The notes under the pieces were generated by a model. It saw only the letters and a list, made by a program, of their open reading frames with translations. It did not search any database and was not told where the DNA came from. From IMG/VR virus record IMGVR_UViG_3300032893_000016, positions 34,147 to 98,146 of that record: a stretch of 64,000 bases of DNA. The stretch is one strand, 5' to 3'. Both the position numbers and the translations under genes were made by a program. Shown here piece by piece: positions 20,633 through 56,834 of the stretch; the stretch's first letter is position 1; each line of letters starts with the position of its first letter. The DNA comes from a virus.

Positions 20633-21553
20633 CTATCCGATCACGTTGGCACAGGCAAGGATAACCTGCCCAATACCATCACCCTTGTACATGACCTTGC
20701 CAAAGGCTTCGAGAACAGCAAGCGAGCGCGCGGCTTTTTTGGTGGTGTCGGCACCCAGCGCGACTTTCGTATGATAGCCGATCACAACCCGGCGTATACT
20801 TTCCGGGTCGAGGTCCTTCATCTTTTCAACCAGTGCCATGATCTGCTTGTAATTGGAACTCTGCAACAGCAGCCGGGCCAGCTCAAAAGCCTCCGGCGCA
20901 TTGGTCGCGGACTGCAGGAGCTCGGCTGCTTCTTCAACAGACCCAGCTTCCATGCAAATGTTCAGGTTCGACAGGGCCTGCCGGGGGCTGCCATTTGCCT
21001 CGTCGGCGCACAGCCCAATGATCTCCCCGCCGACCTTGTCGGTCAGGATATTTTCTTTGTCAGCAATGGTGCACAGGAAATTGTACAGCTCATCGCCCGT
21101 CAGGTCGCGCAAAGCGTACGAGGCAAAGCGGGTCTTGATGCTGGCCTTCAGCTTCGTCGGCGCTGTCGTACAGAAGAACCAATAAATCCACGGGGGCGGC
21201 TCTTCGAGCGATTTCAGCAAGGAATCCAGCGCTTGGCCGGACAAGCCTTGGCACTCATCAATAATGATGGCGCGCGAACCGGACAGCCTATAGTTCAGCG
21301 TGGAAGTGATCTTCCGCATTTCGTCGATACCGGTGTTCGACGCTGCGTCAATCTCAAGGATGCCTTCATCGGGAACCCCGAACGCGCGGGCAGTAATGCG
21401 GGCCAAGGTCGTCTTGCCTGTGCCGGCGTTGCCTGTGAACATGAACCCTTGGGCGGACTTCTTGGCCACGACGGCCTTGAGAGATTTGACCGCGGCGTCC
21501 TGCCCTACCACCTCATCAAAGGTCTTCGGACGATATTTCGTAATCAAGCTCAT
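20633..21553 (-). CDS. Clamp-loader AAA+ ATPase (DnaX/RFC-small-like)
   Basis: 306 residues. Opens with SLITKYRPKTFDEVVGQ, the classic DnaX/RFC start; Walker A GNAGTGKTTLAR, Walker B AIIIDECQGLS, and an SRC-like arginine region KASIKTRFASY. Loads the sliding clamp (24576-25703) for the polymerase next door. A separate small accessory subunit gene (T4 gp62-like) was not recognised. Confidence 0.92.
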   Translation of the reverse strand: MSLITKYRPKTFDEVVGQDAAVKSLKAVVAKKSAQGFMFTGNAGTGKTTLARITARAFGVPDEGILEIDAASNTGIDEMRKITSTLNYRLSGSRAIIIDECQGLSGQALDSLLKSLEEPPPWIYWFFCTTAPTKLKASIKTRFASYALRDLTGDELYNFLCTIADKENILTDKVGGEIIGLCADEANGSPRQALSNLNICMEAGSVEEAAELLQSATNAPEAFELARLLLQSSNYKQIMALVEKMKDLDPESIRRVVIGYHTKVALGADTTKKAARSLAVLEAFGKVMYKGDGIGQVILACANVIG

Positions 21554-24132
21554 GCGGCCAGCTTCCCCTTCCAGGTGTCGGACGCGTACTCGCCCGCCTT
21601 CTTAAGGTCATACCAACTCGGGCCTGCGGACATTTCCACCGTCAAAGGTACATTGACCCAATCGTAATCCGTGTACAGCATCTCGGTAACCACATCCTGC
21701 GCCCATTCATCCGCGCCCTTCTTCTTGCGGAAGAATGTCAAATCGTCATGGATGAACATATTGCACTGGTAATCAAGGCCGCGCTTGGACAGCCGCGTCG
21801 CCGCGCCCATGACGATGAAGGTCTCGCAAGCCTGAATGGGGCTGTTGATGACCTCGTTCATGGACATAGGCGCATGGCGGATCGTGCCATCCAGACTGAT
21901 GACGTATCCATTCTGCTTGTAGAACTTAATGGCGCGCTCCTGCCATTCCTTCACGCCTTCAAAGGTGTACCAGAACTCGTCATACAGCGGGCTGATGACC
22001 TTTTCGGGGATGTCAAGATTGTTGGCCACACTTTGCATGGCCGAGCCAAAGAACAGCGGGAACGTCCAGCCATTCTTTACCACATCGCGGAACTTGCGGA
22101 TCGGATCGTCTTCCAGGTGGAACTCGTCCATACGCCGCGGATATGCCTTGGCCAGCTTCTCGGTCCACTCCAAATGAATGTCATACCGATCCCAAAGCGC
22201 CTTGATGAACGAGCGATCCTGACTGGCCATCGCGATGATGCGCGCCTGAATCTGGCCGTAGTCGAACGCATAACAGTATTCATCCGAGCCGGGTCGTATC
22301 TGCTTGCGGACTTCCTTACCCTCAGCGTCGCGCTTGGGAAAGTTCTGCTCATTGGGGCCATCGGATGATGTGCGCCCCGTCTTGGTGAAGACCGTGTTCA
22401 AGGATGGATGCAGCAGCCCATCCTTCCAATAGTATGCGCCGCCCGGCCCCAGCTCCCGGATATAGGTCGACAGCATCTTCTCGACGCCGCGAAGGTGGAC
22501 AATCTTGTCAAGGCCGGGCAGGTCAATTTCGTTCAGCACGTCTTCATCGGTGGAGTATTTTTCGTTGCCACCGCTATCGGTCTTCCAGCCCTCCTTACAT
22601 TTGTAGACGTCCTTCAGGAGCTTTTCGACATCGTGGTTATTGGTGGGCTTGAACGGCCGCCCGATTACTCTCTTAAACTCTCGCGCAATTTCAGACTTGG
22701 CGATCTCGTCGTGCAGATCGCGTGCAATGTCTTCATATTTATGAAGCAGGTCTTCGTTCTCGTCCGGATCAATAGGCACGCCTTTGAGCTGCGTGAGGAC
22801 GGCTGTTGGAACGCGAGACATCCGCTCGTTGAAATGCTCTTCACGTTTTGCATCCCGTATAAGATCAAACTGTCGAACGCCAAGAAAGTAATGGTACCGA
22901 GTATCGAGCCCATTATAATGTAGAGTATCTTCCAAAGGCTCATTGAGCATGTCCTCCTTGTCCAGCGGGCTTAGAACTTTAAGGTCAAAGCCGAAGTGTT
23001 GGCGCACGAGGAAGTTCAGGGACAGCGGCCCCTGCCTACCCTTCTCGCCGACACGCTCATCGAGCACAGCGGCCTGCACCATCGTGCAAATCCATTCGCC
23101 GGCTCGCAGGATGCTGTGCCCGAACAGGTAGCCAACCCACTCCATTTCAAAGGCCGCATTGTGGACCATCTTGATGACCTTGGAGCACAAGAACGTCTCG
23201 AAGGCATCTCGTATCTTCTCAAACTGCGCTTTCGTCCAGTTCGCCCGCGGATGCTCATAAGGGAAGGCCAGCACCTTCTCGCCCGTGCCAACCGCAATCG
23301 TCAGAAGGCGGCCATCATTGTACGGCCGGACAGTTTCGGTTTCAAAGTCCATGCCGACTGCCCATTGCTCGGCAGCCCATTCAAGGTGTGCGACGATCGT
23401 ATCAACGTCCTCGTCCGTGCCACCCAGCACAATATCGACATTGATGTCGCGCTGGTCCACTTCGTGGTAGTACTGATTGACGTCGGCCCACTCGATCTTG
23501 TCCAGCTCTTTGAAGACGCGCCTTATGTCGAAGTCGAACGCGCGCTCATCCTCATTGTAGATGCCAGCCGCATCGTTCTGCCAATCCTTGCGCTTCTTAA
23601 GGAGCTCGGCCGGGCTGACCACCGGGTATAACCAGCACACATGGCCAGCAATGTTAACCACCGCCCGCCTGCCGCGCCAATCATAGATACGATCGTCGCC
23701 TACGGCCCATTTGAGCGCCGCCTGCCCCACGGCAAGAATGGCCTTGGGCTTGGCAGCGGCAATGTCGCGCTCCACGCTTGGCCTGCAACACTCGACCTCG
23801 TACTTGGCGTCGGTCAGCTTGTTACCGGGCGGGTGCGTGCGCACCACATTGTTGAAGCGGATGTCGCTTTTCCAGTCTTTGGGGATACGCCGGCGTAACA
23901 GCAGCCCCGCCTCCCCGGAGAAGTGGTCGTCCTGTTTATCATCGGTCTTGGACGGGAACTCACCCAGCACATAAAGGAGGGGCTCGGACGCCCCGCTTGG
24001 GGCCATGTGGGGGTGGGCGTTCTTAACCTTATCTAAAGGACAAGCTCTACATTCCAAGCGACGTAGCAATTCCGCGGAAGGTTCTCCCTTCTTGCCCTTG
24101 CCCTTGCCCGTGCCTGAGGCTAGGAAACCCAT
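21550..24132 (-). CDS. UDG-like / 3'-5' exonuclease / family A DNA polymerase fusion
   Basis: 860 residues in three parts. Residues 1-200 look like family 4 uracil-DNA glycosylase: C28, C31, a GEFP loop, NNVVRTHPPGN and a later Cys pair. Residues about 255-420 hold a 3'-5' exonuclease (VGMDFETETVRPY, then AAFEMEW). Residues about 480-860 are a PolA-type polymerase: motif A FDYGQIQARI near 622, motif C NMFIHDDLTFF near 796. It is the phage replicative polymerase. A glycosylase fused to a polymerase is unusual and may relate to modified or deaminated bases. Confidence 0.9.
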   Translation of the reverse strand: MGFLASGTGKGKGKKGEPSAELLRRLECRACPLDKVKNAHPHMAPSGASEPLLYVLGEFPSKTDDKQDDHFSGEAGLLLRRRIPKDWKSDIRFNNVVRTHPPGNKLTDAKYEVECCRPSVERDIAAAKPKAILAVGQAALKWAVGDDRIYDWRGRRAVVNIAGHVCWLYPVVSPAELLKKRKDWQNDAAGIYNEDERAFDFDIRRVFKELDKIEWADVNQYYHEVDQRDINVDIVLGGTDEDVDTIVAHLEWAAEQWAVGMDFETETVRPYNDGRLLTIAVGTGEKVLAFPYEHPRANWTKAQFEKIRDAFETFLCSKVIKMVHNAAFEMEWVGYLFGHSILRAGEWICTMVQAAVLDERVGEKGRQGPLSLNFLVRQHFGFDLKVLSPLDKEDMLNEPLEDTLHYNGLDTRYHYFLGVRQFDLIRDAKREEHFNERMSRVPTAVLTQLKGVPIDPDENEDLLHKYEDIARDLHDEIAKSEIAREFKRVIGRPFKPTNNHDVEKLLKDVYKCKEGWKTDSGGNEKYSTDEDVLNEIDLPGLDKIVHLRGVEKMLSTYIRELGPGGAYYWKDGLLHPSLNTVFTKTGRTSSDGPNEQNFPKRDAEGKEVRKQIRPGSDEYCYAFDYGQIQARIIAMASQDRSFIKALWDRYDIHLEWTEKLAKAYPRRMDEFHLEDDPIRKFRDVVKNGWTFPLFFGSAMQSVANNLDIPEKVISPLYDEFWYTFEGVKEWQERAIKFYKQNGYVISLDGTIRHAPMSMNEVINSPIQACETFIVMGAATRLSKRGLDYQCNMFIHDDLTFFRKKKGADEWAQDVVTEMLYTDYDWVNVPLTVEMSAGPSWYDLKKAGEYASDTWKGKLAA

Positions 24133-27462: not shown

Positions 27463-27907
27463 CAGATGCGTAGCTCCGAATATGGAGGCAGGGCACGTTC
27501 AACTCTTGGTACACCTTAATGACTTCGTGCATATCGTCAAAGGCCATCTCAATGAACCAGCCTTCTCTCCGCACCTTATGGACCATCCCCCGCTTAACCT
27601 CGGCCGTCGTTGTGCCCCAGTCGCCATTGGCGCGAGCCAAGATGCGGCTGCCATCAATCGGCACGTCATGCTTGTACAGCCAGTCCTGCATTTCAGGGAT
27701 GGACCCTTCATGCTTGCCGGTAAACAGAAACAACGGATGAACCTTGGCAAGATTGCGCGCCAGCTTCACCATCTGGTAAAGCGGCGGATCACGGTAGAAC
27801 TTCTCGTCCCACTCTTTCCACTCTTTCGCCTTGGCGTGGTGAATGCGATGGCTAGGGTCGGAAAGCGTGCCCTCCATGTCGAACACGTAGCAGGACGGTT
27901 TACCCAT
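27449..27907 (-). CDS. HAD-type phosphatase (PNK 3'-phosphatase-like)
   Basis: 152 residues. VFDMEGTLSD is HAD motif I with Glu in place of the usual second Asp; LFLFTGKHEG is motif II; IEMAFDDMHEVIKVY is motif IV. Overall it resembles the phosphatase half of phage polynucleotide kinases. The D-to-E change could alter activity. It lies between dpdA and queC with overlapping ends, so a role in the modification operon is possible. Confidence 0.75.
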   Translation of the reverse strand: MGKPSCYVFDMEGTLSDPSHRIHHAKAKEWKEWDEKFYRDPPLYQMVKLARNLAKVHPLFLFTGKHEGSIPEMQDWLYKHDVPIDGSRILARANGDWGTTTAEVKRGMVHKVRREGWFIEMAFDDMHEVIKVYQELNVPCLHIRSYASDDTR

Positions 27908-28665
27908 TACAAGTCAGCCCAAAGCTTTCGATGCTTTACAATTACGTACGGAACAATCTCCGCCTTGCGGTTTCCATCGTAATGAGTACCATGCTTCATT
28001 TCGGAAAGGATGGCAAGGTTGGCTTCAACCGAGAGCGGATCAACCTCGTAGGCCTCCGGGATGCCAAGCTGGCCAAAGACACCCCAGCGCCGGAAGCATG
28101 AAATGCAGTGACCGCAAGGCGTCGGCGTGTTGCTGAGGCACGAGTTCGTGTTATGGATTTCCTCCACCGACACGCCACGCTGCAACAAATACTCAACGAT
28201 CGACACCTTGTTCCAACCGCGGGCGGCCAGCGGAAACATGACCTCCAGGTTGGGCTTCATCGTCGTGTAGCTGAGGACCGTAGTCATCATATGACGGAAC
28301 GTGTTATTCTTATCAACCGCCTTGGCGTGGGTTTCACCCGCCAACGCCCCAATCCACAGCTCATCGGGCAAGGTCATGCAAGCCGCAAGCGCCGCCAGCG
28401 CCATGTTGCGACCCGGAATGTAAATATCGCCGGCGAGGCCCATGGTCTTGATCCCATCCTTGGTCTTGCCCAGCCAGTCGACGCGTCGGATATCAGTTTC
28501 GGGCGGGAGGGACCTGATCTCTTTCTCCAAGTAGGGCTGGCCAATGTCGAAGAAGATTGGATGAACTACGACCGGCTCAGCGCCAATGGGGATGTACCCT
28601 TTGCAAAGGTAATACATGGCCAAGCTATCGAGGCCACCCGAGTAAAGGATTGTCACCTTGGTCAT
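27907..28665 (-). CDS. queC: QueC, 7-cyano-7-deazaguanine (preQ0) synthase
   Basis: Start at 28665 overlaps the folE stop. N-terminal PP-loop KVTILYSGGLDSLAM; a GRNMALAALAA segment; a zinc site NSCLSNTPTPCGHCISCFRR (C-x7-C-x2-C-x2-C). QueC turns 7-carboxy-7-deazaguanine into preQ0 with ATP and ammonia. About 252 residues, close to bacterial QueC length. Confidence 0.92.
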   Translation of the reverse strand: MTKVTILYSGGLDSLAMYYLCKGYIPIGAEPVVVHPIFFDIGQPYLEKEIRSLPPETDIRRVDWLGKTKDGIKTMGLAGDIYIPGRNMALAALAACMTLPDELWIGALAGETHAKAVDKNNTFRHMMTTVLSYTTMKPNLEVMFPLAARGWNKVSIVEYLLQRGVSVEEIHNTNSCLSNTPTPCGHCISCFRRWGVFGQLGIPEAYEVDPLSVEANLAILSEMKHGTHYDGNRKAEIVPYVIVKHRKLWADL

Positions 28666-29237
28666 TTGTTGGCCTCCGCCGCCAGCGCCAGAAACTCCGA
28701 GCGAGCCTTGGCATCCTGGAACATTGCACCCCGAAAAGCTGTCGTGGTCGTCCACGTTCCTGCAATGCAGACACCCCGGCTTTCCATGCACCGGTGTCGA
28801 CAGCGCACAAGCACGCCCGCGCCCTTGGCGTCAAGATGCTTGAACAAAGCGTCGACTATCTGATTGGTCATCCGCTCCTGAACTTGCAAACGGTGGGCAA
28901 AAATATCCACCAGCCGCTTCAGTTTGGAAAGCCCCACGATCCCCTTCTCGCCGGGGATGTAGGCAATATGCGCCACCCCAAAGAACGGGGCCATATGATG
29001 CTCGCAGAAGCTATTGACCGGCAGGTTGGCCTGGAAGATCATTTCATCGTAATGATGACCGGCCTCTTCGAAGACCTTGAGGACGTCCTCCGGCTTCTGA
29101 TTGTAGCCGCTAAACCAATGCTTGAAGGCTTTAGCCACACGTACCGGCGTATCCTTTAAGCCCTCACGGTCGAAGTTGCCGGGCTCAATCTGCTCCAGCA
29201 TTGCCCTTACGGCCGCCTGAATTTCAACTTCACGCAC
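28662..29237 (-). CDS. folE: GTP cyclohydrolase I
   Basis: About 191 residues from the GTG at 29237, which overlaps the upstream stop. NSFCEHHMAPFFG and RCRHRCMESRGV carry the zinc-binding Cys/His residues and catalytic His; GLSKLKRLVDIFAHRLQVQE is the family core. It makes dihydroneopterin triphosphate from GTP, the first step towards preQ0. Its overlap with queC supports one pathway operon. Confidence 0.93.
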   Translation of the reverse strand: MREVEIQAAVRAMLEQIEPGNFDREGLKDTPVRVAKAFKHWFSGYNQKPEDVLKVFEEAGHHYDEMIFQANLPVNSFCEHHMAPFFGVAHIAYIPGEKGIVGLSKLKRLVDIFAHRLQVQERMTNQIVDALFKHLDAKGAGVLVRCRHRCMESRGVCIAGTWTTTTAFRGAMFQDAKARSEFLALAAEANK

Positions 29238-45446: not shown

Positions 45447-46292
45447 TCATTCCTGTCCCATAAACAGGTGCGTCTGGCACGAGAACCTGAATCCGCACTC
45501 CATGCAAATATCGGAGGCGTGCTTATAGTTGCGCATCGTGGCCTCGCGGTCGATCAGCCCGCTGTCCCACATGTTGGGAACCTCGCCAAAGCGCACCGCC
45601 CGCTTGTACACCGTCAGCGGGGAAATGTAAACCTTACCGCGCACTTCCTCCTGCGTGGCCCACGCCGGCACAGAAAAGTAGGGGCTGTCCGTGTCCGCGC
45701 TGACGACAAACTTGAAAGCATCAACCCGGTTGATGTAGCCGACACGCGGCTCCCGGTACACGCCTTTCGTGACCTTGGGGCTGACCACCAGCTTGACCGT
45801 TGAACGCAAGGGGTAGGGGCCATCGATGAACGGCCGCTGGATGTTGTCGCCATTGCTCTCGATCTGAACCGTGAGGCCACCGCCCGCCTCCTGCAACGCC
45901 CGGCACAGATGGGGCAGCATGGGCTGAAGCATGGGCTCCCCGCCCGTGATCACCACGAGGCTGTAGGGATAGGCCAAGACCTTGACCGATGAGAAACGAT
46001 CGTCCTCAATCGTCTTTTCGGGGGCGCACTCACGCACCGCCTTGACAACCTGCTCCACCGTCATGGACATTGAGTTCTCCAGCTCAAAGCTGGTATCGCA
46101 GAACTCGCAACCCATGCCCTCTTTCTGCCCGCGGTTGCAACCCGCCAGCCGGACAAAGACGGCCGGATGCCCGGCGTAAGGCCCCTCACCCTGAATTGTG
46201 TAGAAAATCTTTGTAACGCGCAGCAAAGGGCTCAGCCCTTCATAGTCGGCAGGACCCGCGTTCTTGTCCTGATGCTGGATGTAATGAACCAA
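45447..46292 (-). CDS. queE: QueE, 7-carboxy-7-deazaguanine synthase
   Basis: 281 residues from a TTG start with GGAG 7-8 bases upstream. IFYTIQGEGPYAGHPAVFVR leads into the radical-SAM cysteines CNRGQKEGMGCEFC (C-x9-C-x2-C, not C-x3-C-x2-C). VVITGGEPMLQPMLPH is the SAM-binding GGEP motif. Converts 6-carboxytetrahydropterin to carboxydeazaguanine for QueC. Lies 15 kb away from the other pathway genes, next to the helicase. Confidence 0.9.
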   Translation of the reverse strand: MVHYIQHQDKNAGPADYEGLSPLLRVTKIFYTIQGEGPYAGHPAVFVRLAGCNRGQKEGMGCEFCDTSFELENSMSMTVEQVVKAVRECAPEKTIEDDRFSSVKVLAYPYSLVVITGGEPMLQPMLPHLCRALQEAGGGLTVQIESNGDNIQRPFIDGPYPLRSTVKLVVSPKVTKGVYREPRVGYINRVDAFKFVVSADTDSPYFSVPAWATQEEVRGKVYISPLTVYKRAVRFGEVPNMWDSGLIDREATMRNYKHASDICMECGFRFSCQTHLFMGQE

Positions 46293-48283: not shown

Positions 48284-49153
48284 TTACTCAGCCGCAAGAC
48301 CGCTGGTGTCGTTAGGCGCGGGAATGCGGTGAGCATGGCCCAAGATCGCAATTGGATAAGGCACAGGAGGCTCCTTGTGCAAGAGCAACCGGAATCCCAT
48401 CTCATGATAGTGGGCGAGGAACAGCTTCACCGCGTACCGCTTGGCACGAGCGTGGATATGCGCGGGCGGCAACTTGCCCGACGAATACCACTTATAGGCA
48501 TCGGTGTTCTTGCCAATCTTGAACTTGGCAAGCTTGGCCGCCGCCTGCTCGGCGAAGAGACCGGCGTCGTTCTTCTTGATCTCCTCCGCCTTGCGCTGGG
48601 CATAGATCTGCCCGTACACATCGTCCTCCCGGTTCTGGACCTTGACGAAGGATTCACCAATCTTCCAGCAAAGGGTCTTCAGCGTGGCGTTCCACGGCCG
48701 CTTCTGACCCTTCTCCCACACGGAGGTCGGATCATAACCCGCGTAGCGCCAAATGCTACCCGCAGTCATGCCCTTGCCCTTGTCGCCCGGCTTATTCGGA
48801 TCAGGCGGCACCCCGATCTGAATATGGGCAAGGAGGCCCGCCGCGATGACGGGGCCGATGCCACAAATCGACATGGCCCACTTACCGAGCGGGTTGGCTT
48901 CGGCATACTTCTCCAGCGCCCGCTTGATCTGCTTCTCCATGATGTCATCCTGCATGTTCAGCCAGTTGATGACACTGTGGGGCTCGCCGCTTTCCGACAG
49001 CGCCCGGATCTGGTTGCCCGTCCGGATGCGGCCTTCCTGCATGGTGTAATAGGCGTCGACAAGAAAGCGGGCTTCATCCGCTCCCAAGGTCGCCGCCGAC
49101 TTGGCCAGATCGCGTGATAGCGCACTGACCTTCGGTTCGACTGTCTCGTCCAT
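48284..49153 (-). CDS. HhH protein resembling the IS110 transposase C-terminal domain
   Basis: 289 residues from ATG at 49153. Residues about 100-165 (WAMSICGIGPVIAAGLLAHI, GSIWRYAGYDPTSVWEKG, WNATLKTLCWKIGESF) match the helix-hairpin-helix and following segment of the IS110 Transposase_20 domain. The N-terminal DEDD (RuvC-like) domain of true IS110 enzymes is absent, as are flanking element ends. It is the first gene left of the 2.2-kb repeat array. Known as a phage family of unknown function; probably binds structured nucleic acid. Confidence 0.65.
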   Translation of the reverse strand: MDETVEPKVSALSRDLAKSAATLGADEARFLVDAYYTMQEGRIRTGNQIRALSESGEPHSVINWLNMQDDIMEKQIKRALEKYAEANPLGKWAMSICGIGPVIAAGLLAHIQIGVPPDPNKPGDKGKGMTAGSIWRYAGYDPTSVWEKGQKRPWNATLKTLCWKIGESFVKVQNREDDVYGQIYAQRKAEEIKKNDAGLFAEQAAAKLAKFKIGKNTDAYKWYSSGKLPPAHIHARAKRYAVKLFLAHYHEMGFRLLLHKEPPVPYPIAILGHAHRIPAPNDTSGLAAE

Positions 49154-49278
49154 TGTACTCTTTCTCCTCATTGCCGCAAAATTGCAGCAAGTAGGTACAT
49201 ATGCCTAAGTACACGTCGGCGCAAGAACATTCAGGGTGTAAGGTACTTACTCCGCAGACATAATTCATTTAAGTACAA

Positions 49279-51522
49279 TGGTTCGCTCGCCGGTTCGGTT
49301 CAATTCTGATTTAGTGGTACGCTCTGTGAGTTTGCCTCAATCACGTTGTATGGTACACTCGCCAATCGGTGCTTCAATTGTAAGGCTTGATCCGCTTCTC
49401 CGTTTTGTTTCAATCCAGAAGGATGGTGCTCGCTCTTCAAGATTGTTTCAATTTGACTTACTGGTACTCTCTTGGCAGTTGTTTCAATCTGGTACCTGGT
49501 TCCCTACGGATTATGTTTCAATCGCCATACTGATGGTGCTCTCGCTTTACCTGTTTCAATCATGAAAGCTGGTGCTCTCTTATAGTGTGTTTCCCTGCTG
49601 AGGAGTGGTGCCGGCGTACCGGCCTCAATTATTATAGGTCAATCCGCGGACGTGGTGCGCTTCGGATGTATGTCTCATTCCATCTACTCTGGTACGCTTC
49701 TCGTTGCTGCTTCATTGATTGGGGTGGCACTCTTCTCGGCCATGATTCCATCGGGCTTGTTGGCACTCTCAAATCTTGTAGGTCAATCCTTTTATAAGGT
49801 GCGCTCGAAGATTCTGATTCCCGCGTGTCTACTGGCTCTCTGAAGAAACGTGGGTCAATCATTTTGTTTGGTGCGCTACGAGGTTTTGCTTCGATCATTG
49901 TTGTTGGCGCGCTGAAAGTTGTTGACTCACGTCGAAAACTTGGCGCGCTCAACGAAGATGGTTCAGTCTTTGCAGATGGTACGCTTATCGCATTGCTTCA
50001 AACGTGACCTTGGCGCTCTCTAGTGAATGCTTCCCTTCACAGTCTGGCGGGCTACGCCCACTTACCAACTTTGGGTCAATCATTGTATTTGGCTCACTCC
50101 CGTCTACTGCTTCAATCTGCGAATGTTGGTTCACTTGATGGTGATGCTTCAATCGAGTAACTTGGTACGATCGGAGGAGATGCTTCAATCTGCCTTAATG
50201 GTACTATCAGGTGAAATAGTTTCGATCATTGGTTATGGTACTCTATGTTCACCCGTCTCGTTTTGCTTCATTGGTGCACTCACTTAACTTAAACTCTCTC
50301 AAAGAATGTGGCACGCTGCCTATGCCCGGATCGTTCTAGCGTTATGGTACACGCAGTGTGATATGTCTCGTTCCACGCTAATGATGCGCTGCTCGTGATA
50401 TGCCTCGATCGGAGACGGTGGTGCACTCTGAGGAGAGGTCTCAATTTGGCAGGTTGGTACGCTTTCCAGAAATGCTTCCCTTTCAATCATCGGTGCGCTC
50501 TTCTCGTAGGGGTCATTCTGCGAACTAGGTACTCTCGAGCTTAGTAAATCATTCTACATGCTAGGTGCTCTCGCGGTTCGATGCTTCAATGTTGGGCGTG
50601 GCACACTCGAAGAACCTGCTTCAATCACTTCTTCCGGTACACTAGCACCTGTATCGTTTCACTCGTATTCAGTGGTACTCTCTACATATCAGGGTCAATC
50701 CACAATCTGGTGCGCTGGTGGAAAATGCTTCGCTTCCTTAATTTGGTACTCTTGTAACTTTTGGGTCAATCCGACCTATTGGTGCACTTCCACTTCGTTT
50801 CGCTTCTATGCTCAGGTGCTCTCGCGTCAGTAGGCTCAATCGAAGAGCATGGCCAGCGGGACGCCGGCTCATTTCTTTTGTTTCACTCGGTTTATAGGGT
50901 ACTCTCATATACACCTGATTCAATTGATCCATTGGCACGCTATCCGGATGGATGCTTCAATCAGCCAACTTGGTACAATCGGGGTGTTGTTTCGATCCGC
51001 AATACTGGTACACTCGTATTGCAGTGTCTCGCTGTTCCTTCATGGTACTTCTTCGTCTCACAGGCTCGATCACACACTGCCGGTTCTCTCCCTAAGTTTG
51101 TCTCGATCATAATACTTGGAGCTCTCTTACAATATGTACTCAATCAGTTCATATGGCGCACTCATTCATAATGTTTCATTCAGCAGCCATGGTCCGCTCG
51201 GAATACGTAGATTCAATCCACGACAATGGTACGCTAAAGTTTCAGGTTTCGATCTATAACAATGGTCCACACTCATGTCAAGGAACTCGTTCCAGCGTAT
51301 TGGTGCGCTTCCCAAGGGAGGCTCAATCATTCTGTTGGTACTCTAGGCACATTTGCTTCAATCGCGGTGGATGGTTCACTTCCGCCAATGCTTCAATTAC
51401 TCGATATGGTGCTCTTACGTTCTCTGCTTCAATCATTCGTTTTGGTTCGTTTCTGTGGTATGTTTTCAATCAGGGAGTTTGGTGCTCGCTGTATACACTG
51501 TTTCAATCTCCATGGTTTAGGT
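49279..51522. repeat. Array of about 62 degenerate 36-bp two-box units
   Basis: Plus-strand unit: box B TGGTRCDCTC, 8-10 variable bases, box A (tgYTTCAATC), 8-9 variable bases, then the next box B; mean period about 36 bp. I counted about 62 box-B positions. Common box-B forms are TGGTACTCTC, TGGTGCGCTC and TGGCACTCTC; box A varies to CTCAATC, TTCGATC, GTCAATC and TTCATTC. Variable segments show no obvious repeats. Spacing is far more constant than sequence, as in protein- or RNA-binding site arrays. Not coding and not a normal CRISPR. Confidence 0.85.
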
Positions 51523-51543
51523 TCATTGGCGCGCGGGGCGTAT

Positions 51544-51561
51544 TGTTGCACGGATGCAACA
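51544..51561. other. Stem-loop at array end
   Basis: TGTTGCA cgga TGCAACA, a perfect 7-bp stem, lies 22 bases after the last unit. GGATGCAACA recurs in the stem at about 52091-52109 inside the start of the lipoprotein gene (CCGGATG/CATCCGG). Confidence 0.5.
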
Positions 51562-51737
51562 CAGGTTCGCTCGGGCTAGACTACCCCGACACGCGCTGGC
51601 GTTCACAATGTGAAACAGCAAGGCCAAGGGCTGACGGGTTCGGGCGCATCAAGGCGCATAATGGGGTTGTGTCAGACCTTGGCAGATATGTAGGCAATTG
51701 CGAGCCGGCGTTCAAGCTTCTTGGCGAGGGATAGTAC

Positions 51738-52148
51738 TTACTGCTTGCGCGGCTGCTGATCAACCCGGTCGGATGGGCGAGCACCAGCGGCAAACCCTGT
51801 ACCTGCGCCATATTGAGACTGGCTGGAGGTATAGCTTTCAAGTACCCCATGATCGTCAAATGTTATACTAACGAAAGAAAATCGACTATCCGCCCCGCCA
51901 ACAAAAGCACCAACTATCGGAATGAAGTTCTCTGGCCTTGCCTGCGCCTGCATATAGTTGTACGTCAGCACACGCCTTCCATCCGACAGCAAGGTATTGC
52001 CGGTCGGCTGCCCTAGTCGTTCTACAACCTGATCGTACGTGGTCTTGCCCCTTTCAAAGCTGACCAAATTACGCTCATCCACCTTAACACCGGATGCAAC
52101 ACATCCGGATAGTAACGCACAAGCAAGCAAAGTCAGAACCTTCTTCAT
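51738..52148 (-). CDS. Lipoprotein of the SmpA/OmlA-like type
   Basis: 136 residues. VLTLLACALLSGC at the start is a signal peptide with a lipobox (LSGC). The body has DERNLVSFERGKTTYDQVVE, RLGQPTGNTLLSDGRRVLTY and FIPIVGAFVGG, matching SmpA/OmlA/BamE-like small lipoproteins. Probably an outer-membrane lipoprotein; could alter the envelope or block superinfection. Confidence 0.8.
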   Translation of the reverse strand: MKKVLTLLACALLSGCVASGVKVDERNLVSFERGKTTYDQVVERLGQPTGNTLLSDGRRVLTYNYMQAQARPENFIPIVGAFVGGADSRFSFVSITFDDHGVLESYTSSQSQYGAGTGFAAGARPSDRVDQQPRKQ

Positions 52149-55927: not shown

Positions 55928-56241
55928 TGGCAAGCGAAATCCAGCTCGACACGGAGCTGATGAAGAAGATCATCGACATCCTTCGCTGGGGTCGTGTCTA
56001 CACAAGCCGGGTGCATGGCCGGGTCGACGCGAACGCAACTAAGGTCACGATTGTCGACCTTAACCAACCTGCCGACAAACAGGTCCTGATCGAGTACCCT
56101 TTTACCGAAACGGCCGAACATTCCATTCAGGCTGCCAAGGATGGGATGGTGGCGGGCAAGATCATCGAGCTTCTGATTACCAGCTTGCGGCCCGCGCCTG
56201 AAGGTCCGCCAGAGCCGTCCCCGCAGGAGGAACGAGAATGA
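55927..56241 (+). CDS. Unknown 104-aa protein
   Basis: Alpha/beta protein ending in EGPPEPSPQEERE. Start overlaps the previous stop by one base and its end overlaps the NYN gene by 4 bases. Function unknown. Confidence 0.6.
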   Translation: MASEIQLDTELMKKIIDILRWGRVYTSRVHGRVDANATKVTIVDLNQPADKQVLIEYPFTETAEHSIQAAKDGMVAGKIIELLITSLRPAPEGPPEPSPQEERE

Positions 56242-56834
56242 CAAAGCTCAATGTCATGACCCCTATCGCCTACGCAGGCGAGCGCTACTCGGTTATCGTC
56301 GACGGGCATGGCTTCTACGGCATGCTCCGCGCGGTGGGCTGGCATGTCGACTTCAAGCGCGTGCTGGACCTTGGGCGGCCCGGCCGTCGCATCGAGGCGC
56401 TGTACTTCACGCCGCTGGATGAAGAGAACGCGGACGAGCATAATCCGGTCATCCCGCTGATTGACTTCCTCGGCTACAATGGTTGGGGCATCACGACGAA
56501 AGACTTTACTAACGACTCGCGCCTGCAGTCTGGACGCCGGCGTCCTTCTCTCGTGCCTGAAATGAGTGTAGCGCTCTGCCGCGCTGCGGATTACGTGGAC
56601 CGCTTCATCCTTTTCAGCGGCGACCCCGAACTCGAGCCCGCCATCAACTATGTACAGGCGCGCGGCAAGCCTGTGACGATCGTGGGCGCGGTCGAACAAG
56701 GCTTGGTGGCGGATGGGCTGCGCCGCGCCGCCTTTGACGTCCGGGAGCTGAACAGCCCCGCGATGCGGCACTTTCTGGAAAAGACGCGCCCGGCCCCGGA
56801 CGGCGCAAGCATCCCCTTGGTGTCCTCGGCTTAA
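56238..56834 (+). CDS. NYN/LabA-like PIN-fold nuclease
   Basis: 198 residues. YSVIVDGHGFYGMLRAVGWH, then ALYFTPLDEENA and ADYVDRFILFSGDPELEPAI carry the acidic residues of the NYN (LabA/DUF88) fold: D in VDGHGF, a second acid, and SGD near residue 135. Probable RNA- or DNA-cleaving enzyme; target unknown. Last gene before a 291-bp terminator region. Confidence 0.78.
   Translation: MTKLNVMTPIAYAGERYSVIVDGHGFYGMLRAVGWHVDFKRVLDLGRPGRRIEALYFTPLDEENADEHNPVIPLIDFLGYNGWGITTKDFTNDSRLQSGRRRPSLVPEMSVALCRAADYVDRFILFSGDPELEPAINYVQARGKPVTIVGAVEQGLVADGLRRAAFDVRELNSPAMRHFLEKTRPAPDGASIPLVSSA

What the first reader, a model, noticed from the sequence alone, without database searches (positions are those of the whole stretch)
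49279..51522. About 62 tandem 36-bp units with two conserved boxes and variable spacers
The stretch reads TGGTRCDCTC, 8-10 variable bases, tgYTTCAATC, 8-9 variable bases, repeated about 62 times over 2.24 kb. Spacing is much more constant than sequence, variable parts do not recur, and no frame is protein-like. The box order is regular on the plus strand; read in reverse, box A becomes GATTGAA, like the 3' end of some CRISPR repeats. It looks like an ordered site array for a DNA- or RNA-binding protein, a transcribed non-coding RNA of repeated hairless modules, or a segregation or packaging element. I know of no described element of this design.
Basis: seen in the sequence. Interest (0 to 1): 0.95.

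Follow-up and report, generated by a model that had tools for sequence, protein, structure and literature searches.

The report
Phage TIGR guide-RNA array with TasA
The repeated stretch is a long array of 61 tiny two-part guide RNAs that a neighbouring phage protein probably uses to find and bind DNA; it is a large new example of the TIGR-Tas system described in 2025, not a new kind of element.

Summary
Window 49279-51528 holds a regular two-box array with a 36-bp period: 61 complete units and 122 distinct spacers, most of them 8 nt. The interpretation and strand are not right. The array reads on the minus strand as edge repeat GAGHGYACCA, spacer A, loop repeat GATTGAARCA, spacer B. It lies just upstream of, and on the same strand as, a 289/295-aa gene (48284-49171, minus). 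That protein matches NCBIfam "TIGR-Tas system RNA-guided endonuclease" at 203 bits (cutoff 100). Its predicted fold has TasH and TasR structures as its ten best PDB matches. It has no detectable HNH or RuvC nuclease, so it is a TasA. Of 91 loci scanned (90 relatives plus the Salicola phage reference), 82 carry such an array beside the gene, read on the gene's strand. This is therefore a TIGR-TasA system (Faure et al., Science 2025) in a 98-kb phage. The likely mechanism is processing into about 36-nt tigRNAs that direct TasA to DNA by pairing with both strands, binding without cutting. No target was found in the phage itself or in related loci. Unusual features are the array length, degenerate repeats, and three edge repeats enlarged by a GC-rich hairpin.

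The parts
49279..51528 (-). TIGR array: 61 complete units of edge repeat (GAGHGYACCA), spacer A, loop repeat (GATTGAARCA), spacer B, closed by a terminal edge repeat
   Evidence: two-box parse on the minus strand; 36-bp autocorrelation; same design on the tas strand in 82 of 91 loci
48284..49171 (-). tasA gene, 295 aa from the first ATG; the second ATG at 49153 (289 aa) is a likelier start because GAGGAG lies 10 nt before it
   Evidence: NCBIfam NF052498 TIGR_Tas_endo 203 bits, cutoff 100; PDB 9mty TasR and 21kl TasH by sequence; AlphaFold2 pLDDT 89.8 and Foldseek top ten all TasH/TasR; no HNH or RuvC match
51519..51528 (-). first, truncated edge repeat (CAATGAACCT), 5' end of the array
   Evidence: parse
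49279..49288 (-). last edge repeat (GAGCGAACCA), 3' end of the array; about 125 bp before the likely tasA start
   Evidence: parse
50850..50870 (-). stem-extended edge repeat GAGCCGGCGTCCCGCTGGCCA (7-bp stem)
   Evidence: -11.8 kcal/mol
50045..50063 (-). stem-extended edge repeat AAGTGGGCGTAGCCCGCCA (6-bp stem)
   Evidence: -9.5 kcal/mol
49606..49626 (-). stem-extended edge repeat GAGGCCGGTACGCCGGCACCA (5-bp stem)
   Evidence: -10.6 kcal/mol
51738..52148 (-). 136-aa gene of unknown function (phrog_3135) on the same strand just upstream of the array; possible start of the leftward transcription unit
   Evidence: strand and position; co-transcription is inferred

Best explanation
This is a phage TIGR-TasA system. 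The array is transcribed leftward, on the minus strand, probably together with tasA and the leftward replication genes, and is cut within the edge repeats into 61 tigRNAs of about 36 nt. A TasA dimer binds each tigRNA through its edge and loop repeats. Spacer A pairs with one strand of a DNA target and spacer B with the adjacent stretch of the other strand, opening and sharply bending the DNA. TasA has no nuclease, so it most likely acts by occupying the site and blocking transcription or replication of competing mobile elements or of a host locus. Shown here: array anatomy, Tas identity, missing nuclease domain, strand and conserved linkage. Taken from the 2025 study of relatives: processing, dimer, dual-strand pairing. 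Inferred: expression in this phage, the blocking mode, and the targets.
For: Array of 10-nt alternating repeats with mostly 8-nt spacers and a 36-nt period. The neighbour protein matches the curated TIGR-Tas family at twice its cutoff, and all 59 family members tested match that model. The sequence profile hits PDB 9mty TasR at 1e-28 and TasH at 4e-17. Predicted fold: top ten PDB hits are TasH/TasR, then IS110 transposases. 82 of 91 loci scanned have an adjacent array, with repeats of the GA..CCA type read on the tas strand whether the array is upstream or downstream. The array of Salicola phage CGphi29, shown experimentally to give 36-nt tigRNAs (PMC12045711), has the same layout: AAGACAACCA N8 AAGCGAGCCA N8.
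Against: No RNA data for this phage. The repeats are more degenerate than in most relatives, so some units may not be functional. No target was found, so the function is not shown. No sigma-70-like promoter was found on the minus strand upstream of the array, though the phage may use other promoters.
Confidence: 0.93

Rival explanations
1. It is a TIGR-TasA system, but the guides serve the phage itself or its host takeover (regulating phage or host genes, steering replication or integration) rather than blocking rival elements.
For: TasA lacks a nuclease; the gene and array sit on the strand of the replication genes (helicases, DnaB-like, DNA polymerase). Faure et al. suggest TasA might aid integrases or segregation (PMC12045711).
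Against: None of the 61 guides has a match with 0 or 1 mismatch in the 98-kb record. Near-identical relatives replace most of their spacers, which fits shifting external targets better than fixed self-targets.
Confidence: 0.25
2. The array is partly decayed: an old TIGR array whose repeats have drifted and whose guides are mostly no longer processed.
For: The repeats vary more than in most relatives (score per 36-nt unit 14.5 against about 25-38 in many).
Against: Spacing is kept and the key positions stay near invariant across 62 repeats (edge G5 and C8-C9, loop G5-A6). The Tas gene is intact with conserved family residues. Another large array, L075, is similarly loose.
Confidence: 0.12
3. 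An ordered DNA site array for a phage DNA-binding, segregation or packaging protein.
For: Regular spacing of short boxes.
Against: The two boxes read consistently on the tas strand in 82 loci on either side of the gene; the adjacent protein belongs to an RNA-guided family with solved guide-RNA complexes.
Confidence: 0.02
4. A CRISPR-like mini-array or crRNA decoy, suggested by the GATTGAA-like box.
Against: Repeats of 10 nt and spacers of 8 nt with two alternating repeats do not fit CRISPR; no Rfam match at gathering thresholds in the window; in relatives the loop repeat has other sequences such as GATCGAGACA, GAACGAGTCA and GAGCGAGCCA.
Confidence: 0.01

Closest known systems
TIGR-TasA systems, dual-repeat type (Faure et al. 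2025, Science, PMC12045711; e.g. Flavonifractor plautii FpTIGR)
   Same: Solo Nop-type Tas protein without nuclease; alternating 8-12-nt edge and loop repeats; short spacers; 36-nt unit; array beside the gene.
   Different: 61 units rather than the usual 5-15; loosely conserved repeats; three edge repeats enlarged by a GC-rich hairpin; 8-nt instead of 9-nt spacers.
SpTIGR-TasH of Salicola phage CGphi29
   Same: Phage-borne; 8-nt spacers; repeats AAGACAACCA and AAGCGAGCCA resemble those here; protein 24% identical to P0001 in the alignment.
   Different: TasH carries an HNH nuclease, and its array is short, downstream of the gene and followed by a terminator; here no nuclease, array upstream and no terminator before tasA.
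TIGR stem-loop arrays (TasA of the Peromyscus gut contig, PMC12045711)
   Same: Hairpins take the place of edge repeats, as at three edges here.
   Different: Here 59 of 62 edges are ordinary short repeats; the array is basically dual-repeat.
IS110 transposases with bridge RNA
   Same: Related RNA-binding domain (weaker profile and fold hits).
   Different: No DEDD transposase domain and a many-unit array instead of one bridge RNA.

Membership tests
TIGR-Tas | Array of two alternating 8-12-nt repeats with ~9-nt spacers (some exceptions) | tested here: met
   10-nt edge and loop repeats, spacers mostly 8 nt, 36-nt period; the validated Salicola array also has 8-nt spacers
TIGR-Tas | Adjacent Nop-domain Tas protein | tested here: met
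   NF052498 203 bits, cutoff 100; PDB TasR/TasH by sequence and fold
TIGR-Tas | Repeats share terminal box D and box C motifs that vary together in edge and loop | tested here: met
   Both repeats begin GA and end (C)CA on the minus strand; box D reads GA here rather than the UG of TasR arrays
TIGR-Tas | Array begins and ends with an edge repeat, often truncated, and ends in a terminator | tested here: inconclusive
   Begins with a truncated and ends with a full edge repeat; no terminator seen in the sequence before tasA
TIGR-Tas | Processing into 36-nt tigRNAs bound by Tas | not testable with these tools
   Needs RNA sequencing
TIGR-Tas | Guided DNA binding by spacer A and spacer B on opposite strands | not testable with these tools
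   Target search by this rule found nothing above chance; binding needs an assay
TasA subtype | No HNH or RuvC nuclease domain | tested here: met
   No Pfam nuclease match; the homologous core starts at residue 43 here against 123 in TasR, leaving no room for an N-terminal nuclease
CRISPR | Single repeat of 25-36 nt with spacers of similar size | tested here: not met
   Two alternating 10-nt repeats, 8-nt spacers

The most novel reading that the evidence does not exclude
The array is a hybrid TIGR architecture: a very long dual-repeat array split into four sub-arrays by three stem-extended edge repeats, intermediate between the two published array types. In this phage family the guide content turns over in blocks far faster than the tas gene, which would imply an unknown way of gaining and exchanging guides.
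Probability: 0.3. Interest if true: 0.6.

Novelty: new member of a known kind. Interest (0 to 1): 0.4.

Why it matters
It adds a large phage TIGR-TasA system with 61 distinct guides to a family whose natural targets, spacer origin and TasA function are stated open questions in PMC12045711. The many relatives here include near-identical loci with mostly different guides, which gives material for testing how such arrays change and what they aim at. It also shows that PHROG 4285, labelled 'transposase', matches a Tas protein.

Tried and rejected
Self-targets: composite targets (spacer B followed by the reverse complement of spacer A, the geometry implied by the reported 8-nt 3' overhangs) were searched in the whole 98-kb record; no match with 0-1 mismatch, and matches with 2-3 mismatches close to control. 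Cross-targets: about 1,850-2,270 guide pairs against all held loci. An apparent excess (99 against about 74) shrank to 57 against 51 +/- 7 once duplicate loci and the arrays were removed; apparent hits in tas genes were also about as expected. Base-pair covariation inside the repeats gave no clear pairing. Hairpins are not generally enriched in these arrays (33 against about 55 in shuffles), and the folding energy alone of the three window hairpins is not rare; what is notable is that they coincide with the only three breaks of the period. Rfam: no match. PADLOC: no match for the Tas protein. megablast of window 40000-64000 to known phages: none. Two-box fits with about 200 boxes are fitting artefacts and were filtered by score per box.

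Full report
Observation. The stretch 49279-51528 has a real 36-bp period with a half-period at 18. A model with two alternating 10-nt boxes and free spacer length scores 1174 on the minus strand against under 5 in shuffles and at most 9 in other window segments. Three places broke the period. In each, the edge repeat is enlarged by a GC-rich hairpin: 50850-50870, 50045-50063 and 49606-49626. Collapsing these gives 61 complete units with spacers of 6-10 nt, mostly 8, and no spacer used twice.

Identity. The gene next to it (48284-49171, minus) matches PDB 9mty (TasR) at 2e-11 and TasH at 2e-7, and as a family profile at 1e-28 and 4e-17. NCBIfam NF052498 'TIGR-Tas system RNA-guided endonuclease' scores 203 bits against a curated cutoff of 100, and all 59 aligned relatives match the model. 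The AlphaFold2 model (mean pLDDT 89.8) finds TasH and TasR as its ten best PDB matches and IS110 transposases next. TM-scores are moderate (about 0.45-0.56), so the fold match supports the sequence result rather than replacing it. No HNH or RuvC domain is found and the homologous core begins near the N-terminus, so this is a TasA. PHROG 4285 calls it 'transposase', which reflects the kinship with IS110.

Linkage and strand. 94 relatives were found in IMG/VR, of which 80 were kept, and 10 in bacterial genomes. In 82 of 91 loci scanned (90 relatives plus the Salicola phage reference) a two-box array lies beside tas. Its repeats read GA...CCA on the tas strand, for example GAGAGAACCA N8 GAGCGAGCCA N8, whether the array is upstream or downstream. 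Two of the nine loci not counted do have arrays by other parses: L075 fell under the score threshold, and the Salicola array was lost to a fitting artefact but is plain. The Salicola phage CGphi29 array, shown by Faure et al. (PMC12045711) to be processed into 36-nt tigRNAs, has the same design. In the window the array therefore most likely reads on the minus strand, upstream of tasA and in the same direction as the replication genes to its left.

Mechanism. From Faure et al.: Tas is needed for processing into 36-nt tigRNAs, the tigRNA is held by a Tas dimer through edge and loop repeats, and spacers A and B pair with opposite strands of adjacent target DNA without a target motif. Those steps are carried over by homology. 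What TasA does on its target is not established in that paper; blocking transcription or replication of rival elements is the reading I think most likely. Searches for targets in the own record and in related loci gave nothing above chance. A related phage contig (L095, polymerase 41% identical) has no detectable tas, which fits an accessory element, though the record may be incomplete.

What is unusual. The published arrays mostly have 5-15 units (PMC12045711); here there are 61. The longest other array counted in this set has 47, and L075, from a 188-kb viral contig, has two arrays of about 60 or more. Repeats are looser than in most relatives. The three stem-extended edges keep GA- or AA-type starts and CCA ends and split the array into four parts. 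They recall the stem-loop arrays of Faure et al., but three hairpins are a small sample and their energies alone are not rare.

Spacer turnover. Relatives with tas genes 96-98% identical share only blocks of spacers inside otherwise different arrays (L002, L003, L004, L005; L022 and L026). The shared blocks keep their order and lie inside the arrays, so change is not confined to one end. This was a side result from metagenomic contigs and needs checking against assembly effects.

Verdict. A real feature, correctly seen, of a kind described in 2025: a large TIGR-TasA system in a 98-kb phage record. New member of a known kind.

Noticed in passing
L002/L003/L004/L005 and L022/L026, arrays beside tas: Loci with tas genes 96-98% identical share only ordered internal blocks of spacers; most guides differ. 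Suggests fast block turnover of TIGR arrays.
   Followed up: partly
L075:3457-10865: A 188-kb viral contig with a long Tas (441 aa as called) flanked on both sides by arrays of about 60 or more units each, with loose repeats like those of the window.
   Followed up: partly
L091:718 and L092:518: Both carry the same 10-bp hairpin (GCCCGAGCGG-ATTG-CCGCTCGGGC) inside a repeat-like position (gattgaacgaa...agcca) near the array start; possible further stem-extended repeat.
   Followed up: no
window 45447-46292 (-) and 27907-28791 (-): QueE-like radical SAM and QueC-like genes: parts of a 7-deazaguanine pathway, perhaps for modified phage DNA.
   Followed up: no
window 21550-24132 (-): Family A DNA polymerase with a uracil-DNA glycosylase domain near its N-terminus in the same protein.
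   Followed up: no
window 20633-21553 (-): Protein similar to the N-terminal part of DNA polymerase III gamma/tau (DnaX), noteworthy in a phage.
   Followed up: no
window 56238-56834 (+): NYN-domain (LabA-like) nuclease on the divergent plus-strand side.
   Followed up: no
window 49180-49280: Several copies of a short (A/G)GTAC motif, some palindromic, between the array and tasA; possible regulator site (read).
   Followed up: no
window 51545-51580 (-): A lone edge-like GAGCGAACCT and a TGTTGCA hairpin lie just upstream of the array's first repeat; leader or remnant unit (read).
   Followed up: no
alignment A2: One of the 59 Tas relatives also matches an HNH endonuclease domain (HNH_3); which one was not identified.
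   Followed up: no
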